Shown in pieces: positions 33,949-37,732 of a stretch of 64,000 nucleotides of DNA; the stretch's first letter is position 1; every line of letters begins with the position of its first letter. A program made the translations under genes and the position numbers. Source of the DNA: Pyrococcus yayanosii CH1 (GTDB lineage: Archaea > Methanobacteriota_B > Thermococci > Thermococcales > Thermococcaceae); the NCBI RefSeq assembly GCF_000215995.1, contig NC_015680.1, forward strand, positions 682,001-746,000, read 5' to 3'. The notes under the pieces are model-generated. The model saw nothing but the letters and a program-made list of their open reading frames with translations, ran no database searches and had not been told where the DNA came from.

Positions 33949-34326
33949 TCACGACGTTTCCACCTTTATGAACTCAACGGATTGTCTGAGGTTCCTAACT
34001 ATATTCCTAAGCTCGGCTATATTCCTCTTGACCTCCTCAAGGGCTGAGGCCTGTTCCTCTGCACTTGCACTGACTTCCTCCGCGCTGGCCGTCATTTCCT
34101 CCGCGGAGGCGGCAAGGTTCTCAAGGGCCTTTTTAGACTCCTCGACCTTCTCTTGGGTCATTAAGACTTCATCCTTAATTTCCTTAAGCTTCTCCTCCAC
34201 ATCGTCGAGTAGCTCTCCTATAGTCATAAGGTACCCAACGGTCTCCCTTAGGAAGTCAACGGAATCATCCACGACCCGAACCCCTTTCCTAGTTTCCTCG
34301 ACGGCTCTCTGCACCTTTTCTTGGAT
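33949..34326 (-). pseudogene. Methyl-accepting chemotaxis protein, 3' fragment
   Basis: This is the C-terminal coiled-coil arm of a chemoreceptor, cut off from its start by the IS element next to it. It reads IQEKVQRAVEETRKGVRV, then long heptad helices rich in Glu, Ala and Lys (AASAEEMTASAEEVSASAEEQ, seen in part as methylation-type segments), and ends VEFIKVETS. Joining it exactly to the other half at 35941 restores one frame of 505 codons, with no duplicated or lost codon. The longest internal ATG-started frame is 121 codons, so the fragment could be made alone, but it lacks the signalling tip. Confidence 0.88.
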
Positions 34327-34367
34327 CTGACCTCCTCCCCGCCCTGAAGGGCGAGGGTTCCAACGAG

Positions 34368-35666
34368 TTAACCCCTCGCCATTGACGGGGAGGTTTGAGG
34401 GGTCTCCATCAGGAACCCTTTCAAGGGTTCCCTGAACCCCTCGGGGACGGCCTTGCCCCCGTTACCCCTACCTGCCGTTAAACCCGGCAGGCTCGGGGTT
34501 ATCGTTCTAACAACTTTCTTCAAGATATTAAACGCTCCAACCAAGTCCGCATTCATAACAACGCCCTCTCTGTGGCACTTAAACAAACCTCTAACGAACC
34601 TACCATTAGGGTGGCGTTGGCCACAGAGAGGGCAAGTCTTTGAAGTGAAAGCCTCATCAACTATAACAACTTTAATACCATACTCTTCGGCAACCTCCTT
34701 GAGTCGTTTGATGACGTAATTGAAACGCCAAACGTGGGAAAGCAAGAAGTTTTGCTTTCTACCCTTGTCTGAATTTCTTGCAATTTCTTTTGGGTAACCA
34801 ACCACAATTCTGCTAACGCCTAATTGATAGAGTTTTTCAACTGTCTGCCTAACTGCAGTGTTAATGTAGTGTTTAGCTTGAAGTTTGGCTTTTTGATACA
34901 TTCTCTTAAGTTTTCTGCTCTTTTTAGCACTACTCTTGTTGAGCTTAGACTGATAATCAGCAATCTGCTTTTGCCAGTAAAAGGCGATACTTTTTAATGG
35001 TCTTCCATTAACCAGAAATGATTTGCCGTTCTCGACATAAACAGCCATTAGATTGTTCACGCCCAAGTCAATTCCCGCAGTTAAACTTCCTAAAGGTTGT
35101 CTCGGAACTCTAACCCATTCTTTCCAAAATTTCTCTTCCACCGTGTAGCTGATGTGGGCGTACCATTTTCGCTTCACATCGTCGTAAACAATTTCAAGTC
35201 TTCCCTGCTTGCCCTTCCAGTGAATTCTACCCTTGAATTGAATCCTCAGTCTACCAAATTTTCCGAGCCTCCTCAGCTCGATAACGTTCCCATCAATCCG
35301 GTACTGGTCATTCCTCAGTGGAATGATGAAGCGCTTCTCTTCTTTAATGAACTTTGGAGGTTTTGGCTTGAACCACTCTAGTAATTCTCCAGCTTTTTTC
35401 TTCTTGTTCAGGGAGAAGAAGCTTCTCCAAGCTTCAGCGTTCTTTCTTGCTAATTGCTGGACTGTTGAACCGCCAATCCAATCCTTAAAGTAGTAATAGG
35501 CTTCTTTTTCCGTCCCATTAAAGTCTATCTTGCCAAACTCTTTGAATTGCTTCAACCTCTCGTAGTTAATTTTGTTCCAGATTATGGCTGTAGCTTGAGC
35601 TAACTCGAAGAGGATTTTCTCTTGCTCTTTTGAGGGCTGTAGTTTTACCGTTACTGAACGCTTCAT
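34368..35666 (-). CDS. tnpB: TnpB, RuvC-type RNA-guided nuclease of the IS605 element
   Basis: 432 residues. The RuvC triad is complete: GIDLGVNNL (Asp200), VIVDEAFTSKTC (Glu338) and MNADLVGAFNIL (Asp374). The zinc-ribbon segment begins CPLCGQRHPNG and has a FKCHREG second half with only one clear Cys, as in other Thermococcales copies. TnpB proteins are ancestors of Cas12 and are guided by an RNA covering the right end of the element. Here that RNA would end at 34327 and use mcp sequence as guide. The ATG overlaps the stop of the upstream small gene by 4 bp. Confidence 0.94.
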   Translation of the reverse strand: MKRSVTVKLQPSKEQEKILFELAQATAIIWNKINYERLKQFKEFGKIDFNGTEKEAYYYFKDWIGGSTVQQLARKNAEAWRSFFSLNKKKKAGELLEWFKPKPPKFIKEEKRFIIPLRNDQYRIDGNVIELRRLGKFGRLRIQFKGRIHWKGKQGRLEIVYDDVKRKWYAHISYTVEEKFWKEWVRVPRQPLGSLTAGIDLGVNNLMAVYVENGKSFLVNGRPLKSIAFYWQKQIADYQSKLNKSSAKKSRKLKRMYQKAKLQAKHYINTAVRQTVEKLYQLGVSRIVVGYPKEIARNSDKGRKQNFLLSHVWRFNYVIKRLKEVAEEYGIKVVIVDEAFTSKTCPLCGQRHPNGRFVRGLFKCHREGVVMNADLVGAFNILKKVVRTITPSLPGLTAGRGNGGKAVPEGFREPLKGFLMETPQTSPSMARG

Positions 35667-35818
35667 TTTTCTTCCCGCTCAACTTTTTCAATCCAGAGCT
35701 TCATAGCCTCAGTAACTGCAACTCCTAATGCCCCCCTAATCCGCCCATACTTCTTTGCCACGAGCTTTCTGAACCTCTCCTCAACCCCATCATCAACGGA
35801 AACAGTTATGACTCCCAT
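35663..35818 (-). CDS. Small ribbon-helix-helix-like protein within the IS element
   Basis: 51 residues: MGVITVSVDDGVEERFRKLV, a short strand and two helices, the size and pattern of CopG/ribbon-helix-helix DNA-binding proteins, ending EAMKLWIEKVEREEK. The start is ATG 35818, right after GGTGGGAGC. A TATA-like CTTAAATAC lies near 35848-35856 and would serve both genes. The ATGA overlap with tnpB implies coupled translation. It may repress the element's own promoter. The longer frame up to 35881 lacks a start signal. Confidence 0.7.
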   Translation of the reverse strand: MGVITVSVDDGVEERFRKLVAKKYGRIRGALGVAVTEAMKLWIEKVEREEK

Positions 35819-35940
35819 GCTCCCACCATTAAGTATTAATACATACAAGTATTTAAGCCTTTCTTTTGCTTTCCTGCTCAAGAGCCAAATTCTCGAACAC
35901 TGTACCCCGCCCTAAAGGGCGAGGCTTGAAAAGAAAAAAT

Positions 35941-37080
35941 GTCATTGACTATTCTCTTAATGTTGTCAGCTGCATTTTTACTCTCTTCGGCAAGGTTCCT
36001 AACCTCTTGGGCAACGACAGCAAAGCCCCTGCCAAGTTCTCCTGCCCTAGCCGCTTCTATAGCGGCGTTCAAGGCAAGAAGATTTGTCTGCTCAGCTATA
36101 TTTGCTATTGCGTTCGTTATCTCGTTGATTTTCTTACTCATTTCCGCAACTTCAAGGACAGCATCCATTATGACTTTCATAGCATCTTGTATTTCTCCCA
36201 CCTGGGATATGGCCCTCTCTCCCTTCTCCTTGCCCTCTCTCGCTATACCTATGACATTTTCAACCACATTGCTGAACTCTTCCATGGCCTCAACGGTCTT
36301 TTGGCTAACCTCTGCCGTCGTATTCATGCCCTCCATCACCATCGTTATGCTTTCCTGCTGCCTCTGAGCCTCAGTGCTGACTTGTTGAATAGCCTCTGCA
36401 ACTTGATTCACGGCCTCAGTGATCTCGGTTGCTATCCTCGTGAGCTCGTCGGCCCTCTTCTCCAGGGTTAGGGCAAGGTCCTTCACGGTCTTCATGAGAG
36501 ACCTGAGCTGTCCTATGGTTTTCCTCATCGCGTTCAGGATTGTCTCGAAGTCACCCCTTGCATGGAGAGTGAGCTCCTCCGCGATGTCTCCCTTTGCTAT
36601 CTTCTCCATCCTCTCAGTGATAACTTCCAGTGTCTGCAAAACGTCGGTGGATATCGTCTTAAAGGCCTCGAGAAGCTTTCCTATTTCATCTCTCTCGAAG
36701 TACTTTATCCTACTTATGAGGTTCTCCGCCTCCTTCAGTCTTCCTTCCGCTATCGTCTCGGCCACCCTTGTCATCTGGATGACTGGGCCAAGGGCCGATT
36801 TCATGAGCCAGTAAGCGACACCTCCGGACACAGCCGCCGTTATTGCCATGACGCCTATACTTATCCATAAGGTCCGCCTAAGCTTGGAAAGTGCACTGGC
36901 AAGATGCTCCTCGAGCGTCACGGTTCCGCTCGCGCTGGTCTCCGTTTTAACGGCCTGTATTGTCTTTTCAAGGTCAGAAGCCAGGTTGTGCGTAGCTATC
37001 TGCTGCACCAGTATTGCACTCAAGACAACGAGAATTAGGGGAATTGCAATTGCCAATGTCAGCTTCCTCTTAAATTCCAT
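35941..37080 (-). pseudogene. Methyl-accepting chemotaxis protein, 5' fragment
   Basis: Residues 1-380 of a chemoreceptor. A transmembrane helix is at about 8-27 ([19 protein letters not shown]), a short outer segment of about 45 residues follows, then a second helix at about 72-92 ([21 protein letters not shown]), a HAMP domain, and the cytoplasmic signalling rod. The conserved hairpin tip [21 protein letters not shown] is intact, followed by [19 protein letters not shown]. The frame runs 20 codons into the IS element and stops, so the return arm is lost. The short outer segment suggests sensing at the membrane or inside rather than a large external ligand domain. Confidence 0.9.
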
Positions 37081-37081
37081 A

Positions 37082-37732
37082 TTATTCTATCACCTTCCCC
37101 CTTGCACCCTTCAGCTCCGGGAAAACGCTCTTCTTCACGACAAAGGAGTGCCCATCATCGATAACCCTGATGACCACGGGAAATATCATCCTAAGCATTG
37201 AGAGAACTTCGACGGATACCTTCTTTATCGCATCAACGTTGAGAAACACGATGTCCCTGATGTCTATCTCTTTAGTAACGATATATTCTCCTATGTCATG
37301 AACCTGCTCGATGAGCTCTTTCTTGTCGAAGATGTTCATTATGTTCTCAATGCCAAGCTGGATGTTTATTGAGAACGTGCCTTTTGGTAGTGTCGTGAGG
37401 ACCTTTCCAAGCGCTTCCTCATAGAGGGTCTTATAAACGGGATACGCGGATACAGGAATCTTGTGAAGAACGTTTCCGACGTTTATCTTTCCTCCCACCT
37501 TAATTATGGCAGCATTCTCGATTATACTCGTGTCAAGGTCAAGGAGTTCAGCCTGATACTTGTAAATGGCGAGGGTGTCAAGGAAGTCCGTGATTATTAT
37601 CCCTATAGAGTCCCCGTACTTATCCTTTACCTTTTTTATGATGTCGAATATCGTCGGGCCAAGTATATCTTCGGATGTGTGCTCTACCAGTATGCTAATT
37701 CGTTTCTTCTCAAGTACATCCAAGATAGTCAT
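37082..37732 (-). CDS. DUF257-like protein upstream of the chemoreceptor
   Basis: 216 residues. The pattern [29 protein letters not shown], then [21 protein letters not shown], resembles DUF257, a Thermococcales family with a RecA-like fold that has lost the P-loop. It ends directly before the chemoreceptor start (1 bp gap), so the two form an operon. A tiny upstream stop-free stretch and CACCTCTTTTAG give AGGTG as ribosome binding site on the minus strand. The function is unknown. A related protein is encoded at 42440-43054. Confidence 0.65.

What the first reader, a model, noticed from the sequence alone, without database searches (positions are those of the whole stretch)
34327..35940. TnpB element whose guide RNA would target the uninterrupted chemoreceptor gene
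The element is inserted precisely, with no net codon loss, and TnpB keeps its RuvC triad. Established: the TnpB guide RNA ends with host sequence beyond the element's right end. Here that is mcp sequence running down from 34326. Inferred: the nuclease would cut empty mcp copies next to a proper adjacent motif, protecting the insertion, with the motif being the last bases before the left end (35941 side, ...AATGACAT on the minus strand).
Basis: partly seen in the sequence, partly recalled or inferred. Interest (0 to 1): 0.55.

Follow-up and report, generated by a model that had tools for sequence, protein, structure and literature searches.

The report
Jumping gene with self-guided retention nuclease
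A small jumping gene has split a chemoreceptor gene of a heat-loving archaeon and carries an RNA-guided nuclease whose guide fits the unsplit gene, so it could cut copies that lost the element; the mechanism is known, but here the nuclease travels with a small, tightly linked, probably DNA-binding protein instead of a transposase.

Summary
Window 34327-35940 (minus) is an IS200/IS605-type element inserted without gain or loss in an mcp gene: the joined flanks align without a gap to whole mcp genes of three same-genus genomes. Its 3' end folds as a TnpB guide RNA with covariation and resembles the HgcC RNA family below threshold; the next bases are mcp, so the rejoined site is TGAC plus the guide target. 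Corrections: the motif is TGAC, not AATGACAT; the canonical catalytic Glu is Gly in 136 of 136, with an alternative Glu, E338, in 136 of 136; whole mcp genes of relatives lack TGAC and have about five guide mismatches, so the target is this species' own empty allele. My searches found no paper on that pairing. Cutting is untested. Known mechanism; the gene pair makes it a variant.

The parts
35941..37080 (-). 5' part of the interrupted mcp gene (380 codons; HAMP and first part of MCP signal domain)
   Evidence: Pfam MCPsignal 8e-31 and HAMP; gapless joined alignment with relatives
35941..35944 (-). TAM / target tetranucleotide TGAC
   Evidence: 41 of 43 clade A copies with T[TG]AC have TGAC here
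35905..35940 (-). left end: T-rich tip, guide tetranucleotide CAAG (35925-35928) and hairpin CCTCGCCCTTTAGGGCGGGG
   Evidence: sequence; conserved in relatives
35819..35856 (-). putative promoter: TTAAATA box and the segment before the RHH start (possible operator, unproven)
   Evidence: conservation test inconclusive
35663..35818 (-). 51-aa ribbon-helix-helix-like protein gene, overlaps tnpB start (ATGA)
   Evidence: mean pN/pS 0.12; helices 10-24 and 30-50; Pfam RHH hits only for relatives and below cut-off
34368..35666 (-). tnpB, 432 aa, D200 / E338 (alternative) / D374
   Evidence: Pfam, 136-sequence alignment
34327..34504 (-). guide RNA (omegaRNA / HgcC-like) scaffold, overlapping the tnpB 3' end and the right end
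   Evidence: HgcC 41.7 bits, sot0042 38.9 bits, both below gathering; covariation
34307..34326 (-). predicted 20-nt guide ATCCAAGAAAAGGTGCAGAG = mcp sequence
   Evidence: position next to the conserved right end GGTCAG; only exact match in the genome
33949..34326 (-). 3' part of the interrupted mcp gene

Best explanation
A transposase-less IS200/IS605-type element moved by a TnpA acting in trans. TnpA excises it as single-stranded DNA and rejoins mcp at TGAC|ATCC (inferred). TnpB, loaded with the RNA made from the right end plus about 16-20 nt of mcp, recognises TGAC followed by that target in the rejoined mcp and cuts it; repair from a sister chromosome that still has the element restores the insertion (inferred; proposed for ISDra2 TnpB, whose cutting is established). 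The resident copy is spared because TCAG, not TGAC, precedes the target. The overlapping RHH-like protein most likely represses its own RHH-tnpB transcript (inferred). Shown: ends, precise insertion, motif, open nuclease with conserved catalytic residues in the alternative arrangement, conserved structured RNA, RHH-tnpB linkage. Not shown: RNA from this locus, cutting, role of RHH.
For: Empty sites for two elements; shared motif; covarying guide RNA: 88 double-change cells against 33.4 in shuffles, 36 sequences; HgcC/sot0042 similarity; expressed HgcC RNAs from three T. kodakarensis transposase genes (PMC4247193, passages), in a genome that by recalled length has three close homologues in the matching order, one of them an RHH-tnpB element; TnpB residues D200 and E338 in 136 of 136; a complete TnpA frame in the genome; left-end guide base against motif base: C with TGAC 40, A with TTAC 51, crossed 7 of 98; TnpB mechanism of ISDra2 (PMC8612924, passages).
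Against: No RNA or cleavage data for this locus; Rfam scores under the curated cut-offs; the alternative Glu and the three-Cys zinc knuckle (fourth Cys mostly Glu or Thr) were not shown to be active; the motif parser preferred TTAC/TGAC, and 14 of 116 copies had neither or did not parse; copies are related, so the Fisher value 1.8e-19 overstates independence; the resident complete TnpA belongs to a TTAC-type element.
Confidence: 0.75

Rival explanations
1. An immobile relic: TnpB and RNA are conserved by recent descent but the element no longer moves or cuts, and the mcp break is simply a loss.
For: No tnpA in the element; no RNA data; decayed copies and 46-bp scars in the genome.
Against: Open frame, invariant catalytic residues, intact ends, second gene with pN/pS about 0.12, complete TnpA in the genome.
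Confidence: 0.15
2. TnpB here is a guide-directed DNA-binding repressor (TldR-like) rather than a nuclease, acting with RHH as a regulator pair.
For: Canonical RuvC-II Glu is Gly in 136 of 136; zinc finger lacks one Cys; linked to a probable DNA-binding protein.
Against: D200, E338 and D374 are kept; E338 fits the alternative active site of Fanzors and some TnpBs (PMC10711439, passages); elements keep both ends.
Confidence: 0.1
3. The RHH-like protein is not a repressor but an assembly or targeting partner of TnpB, or helps retention or transposition directly.
For: Overlapping stop/start and linkage also to TnpBs only about 24-28% alike; operator search inconclusive.
Against: Most copies (106 of 141) have no such RHH; RHH proteins are as a rule DNA-binding repressors (recalled).
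Confidence: 0.25

Closest known systems
ISDra2 TnpB (Deinococcus radiodurans), IS200/IS605
   Same: Right-end RNA with flank as guide, motif at the left flank, precise rejoining, proposed retention role (PMC8612924, passages)
   Different: TGAC instead of TTGAT; alternative catalytic Glu; no tnpA in the element; RHH-like gene instead
IS608-type elements (TTAC target, left-end guide AAAG; recalled)
   Same: TTAC-type relatives share target and AAAG-like left-end tetranucleotide
   Different: The window subfamily has CAAG with TGAC
HgcC RNA (RF00062) and sot0042 (RF02656)
   Same: Same position at the 3' end of tnpB genes; the HgcC model ends with the same right-end sequence plus a variable tail
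   Different: Scores below gathering
Fanzors and alternative-Glu TnpBs
   Same: Glu six residues before the zinc finger
   Different: RuvC-I is DLG, not DPG; the second zinc-finger CxxC is incomplete

Membership tests
IS200/IS605 insertion sequences | Subterminal hairpins, insertion 3' of a short motif, no target duplication | tested here: met
IS200/IS605 insertion sequences | Encodes a Y1 (HUH) TnpA transposase | tested here: not met
   None in the element; one complete and one shortened frame elsewhere in the genome; so at most a non-autonomous member
TnpB / OMEGA nuclease | RuvC nuclease with D-E-D and zinc-finger domain | tested here: met
   Pfam; alternative Glu, 3 of 4 zinc-finger Cys
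TnpB / OMEGA nuclease | Structured RNA overlapping the tnpB 3' end, ending at the right end | tested here: met
   (structure only; expression at this locus not tested)
TnpB / OMEGA nuclease | Motif-dependent RNA-guided DNA cutting | not testable with these tools
   Only the sequence prerequisites were seen
TldR (nuclease-dead TnpB) | Loss of RuvC catalytic residues | tested here: not met
   D200 136/136, E338 136/136, D374 134/136
Ribbon-helix-helix proteins | RHH profile match and strand-helix-helix fold | tested here: inconclusive
   No Pfam hit for the window protein; RHH_6 below cut-off for three relatives; two helices after a low-confidence N-end, pLDDT 70.6; no fold match
HgcC RNA RF00062 | Reaches the curated gathering score | tested here: not met
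   41.7 against 50 bits

The most novel reading that the evidence does not exclude
A transposase-less class of elements in Thermococcaceae in which a dedicated RHH regulator controls a retention nuclease, and in which such TnpBs serve, in trans, whole sets of guide-only mini-elements (five near-identical copies of up to about 415 bp, with their own TATA-like box, a guide-RNA-like 3' end and different flanks, in this genome). The mini-elements seen complete are TTAC-type, so their nuclease here would be the TnpB at 34907-36214 of the genome rather than the window's.
Probability: 0.35. Interest if true: 0.6.

Novelty: new variant of a known kind. Interest (0 to 1): 0.38.

Why it matters
It gives a clean natural case for TnpB retention in a hyperthermophile: motif, guide and empty target can be written down and tested. 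The RHH-tnpB pair suggests that the nuclease is dosed by its own regulator when tnpA is absent, and a heat-stable TnpB with the alternative active site and TGAC and TTAC sister clades would help to map how the motif is read.

Tried and rejected
Operator for RHH: the segment after the TATA-like box is more conserved than the spacer in the TGAC-type RHH group (0.75-0.79 against 0.55-0.66 in the two bins with most pairs; the two small bins, 1 and 3 pairs, do not add to this) but not in the TTAC-type RHH group (0.60-0.65 against 0.57-0.67), and elements without RHH show a smaller excess, so no operator is claimed.

Residues that set TGAC against TTAC: the two TnpB clades differ over much of residues 28-133, and five copies with the other clade's motif keep their clade's residues at most of these places, so nothing separates motif from ancestry. 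In those five the left-end tetranucleotide goes with the motif in two (L122, L129) and not in three (L093, L043, L127).

TnpB structure: single-sequence model, mean pLDDT 43.7, not used. RHH model: best fold match E 5.6. The tnpB pN/pS lines are an artefact of an ungapped comparison and were dropped. The Rfam gathering scan of nine related loci gave no HgcC hit.

RHH outside Thermococcaceae: 40 of 115 phylum genomes match, all 40 in this family. RHH-like genes without tnpB found next to them: 16 of 71 rows.

Full report
What is there. The genome is one contig of 1,716,818 bases, which by recall fits Pyrococcus yayanosii CH1; no tool named it. On the minus strand an mcp gene is split by an element at 34327-35940. 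Joining the flanks gives ...ATAGTCAATGAC|ATCCAAGAAAAG..., which aligns without a gap to whole mcp genes in three same-genus genomes (L024, L025, L026). Four other places in the genome carry MCP signal domains over the cut-off, so the cell is not left without receptors.

Ends and motif. The left end is a T-rich tip, a tetranucleotide (CAAG) and a hairpin; the right end is a hairpin and AGGAGGTCAG. The element or parts of it match 22 places in the genome. I collected 141 distinct related tnpB elements from the best-scoring part of a search of 94 family genomes, 64 of which have a match (the list was cut by the tool), together with the RHH loci. Their architecture is tnpB without these partners in 106, RHH-tnpB in 27, tnpA-tnpB in 8. 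A left end was parsed in 116; 102 of these follow TTAC or TGAC (the parser preferred these two). TnpBs at least 75% identical to the window's have TGAC 41, TTAC 2; the others TTAC 56, TGAC 3. The first base of the left-end tetranucleotide goes with the second motif base in 91 of 98 (C with TGAC 40, A with TTAC 51; crossed 2 and 5; four more with T or G there were left out). This is what pairing between left end and target, known for IS608 (recalled), predicts, although common descent explains part of it. It suggests that the RHH-tnpB and tnpB-only elements are still moved by a TnpA in trans. One complete TnpA frame is present in the genome, in an element whose own tnpB is broken (235-aa frame).

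Second test of precision. For another RHH-tnpB element (L038) two other species have the uninterrupted site, 235 and 230 of 240 bases ungapped, with TGAC and 20 of 20 target bases kept. There the guide would fit real alleles of other species. For the mcp element it would not: relatives have GGAG, GGAA or GGAC and about five mismatches to the guide. In its own genome the guide has its own flank as the only exact match and one further site with three mismatches.

Guide RNA. Rfam's HgcC and sot0042 cover the right end (41.7 and 38.9 bits, E 1.7e-7 and 6.2e-8, both below their gathering scores of 50 and 88); the HgcC model runs through GGUCAG into a variable tail, here mcp. An alignment of 36 right ends (window, 17 random of its clade, 18 random of the other) folds with 36 pairs, 12 with changes on both sides; 88 cells have double changes against 33.4 in shuffles, and sliding the partner by one column drops pairing from 95.7 to 65.8%. 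HgcC RNAs were seen in T. kodakarensis, three of them starting inside transposase genes TK0298, TK0495 and TK0850 (PMC4247193, passages). The genome of that recalled length (2,088,737) has close homologues at 249.8, 425.0 and 742.1 kb, in the matching order; the last is an RHH-tnpB element (L053). That these are the three named genes is inference. Processing of such RNAs in T. kodakarensis and halophiles is reported in PMC8303175 (passages), and PMC12558985 (abstract and passages) treats halophile sotRNAs as omegaRNAs. P. abyssi ncRNAs related to orphan OrfB 3' ends were reported in PMC3124441 (passages); whether they belong to this family I did not establish.

Nuclease. Of 141 elements 136 have at least 380 open codons. 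D200 is invariant, D374 is kept in 134, the canonical Glu position is Gly in all 136, and E338 is invariant. PMC10711439 (passages) defines the alternative Glu as six residues upstream of the zinc finger, which is its place here. The finger has C345, C348, C364 but Glu, Thr or other in the fourth place; H352 is kept in 135. So the nuclease is probably active but of the less-studied arrangement.

The RHH-like gene. A 51-aa gene (35663-35818) overlaps tnpB by ATGA. Family genomes gave 83 listed matches; I examined 71 rows, of which L001 and L036 are the same element. All 25 distinct places at 75% identity or more lie directly before tnpB (two more, L134 and L163; one of the 28 listed at that level was not examined). 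Of 19 rows at 48.5-60% five, and of 26 rows below that 24, do so, many before a TnpB only about 24-28% alike to the window's. So several RHH types pair with at least two distant TnpB groups. The remaining 16 rows are two other RHH groups with no tnpB found nearby and one copy missed by the offset rule. The gene is under purifying selection (mean pN/pS 0.12, 13 sequences). Its fold is suggested, not shown. Searches for TnpB with ribbon-helix-helix, RHH or CopG found no paper on the pairing in their listings; the library holds only open-licence papers.

Verdict. The mechanism is known; the RHH-tnpB pairing is the part that goes beyond it.

Noticed in passing
genome C1:169391-169804, 574287-574563, 868797-869112, 1194261-1194690, 1585187-1585530 (L008-L012): Five near-identical mini-elements (up to about 415 bp) with no protein gene, a TATA-like box and a guide-RNA-like right end, each with different flanking 'guide' sequence; HgcC 31.5 and 37.5 bits in the two scanned.
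   Followed up: partly
L015, L017, L018 (genome C1 near 81718, 1548198, 548494): About 46-bp solo scars: left tip, one shared hairpin and right tip, still after GGGAC or TTAC; look like collapse between the two end hairpins.
   Followed up: no
genome C1:1583210-1583710 (L005, L006, L241): Internally deleted element that keeps a different RHH gene (55% identical) and the start of tnpB.
   Followed up: no
L057-L062, L231-L234: RHH-like genes 50-56% identical without tnpB found nearby; those printed share a similar upstream stretch across genomes.
   Followed up: no
L002:7-716 (genome C1 near 33.4-34.1 kb): Another tnpB element lies about 0.8 kb from a CRISPR array (RF01350 repeats).
   Followed up: no
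window 37082-37732 (-): Gene upstream of mcp is a DUF257 protein, E 1.7e-21.
   Followed up: no
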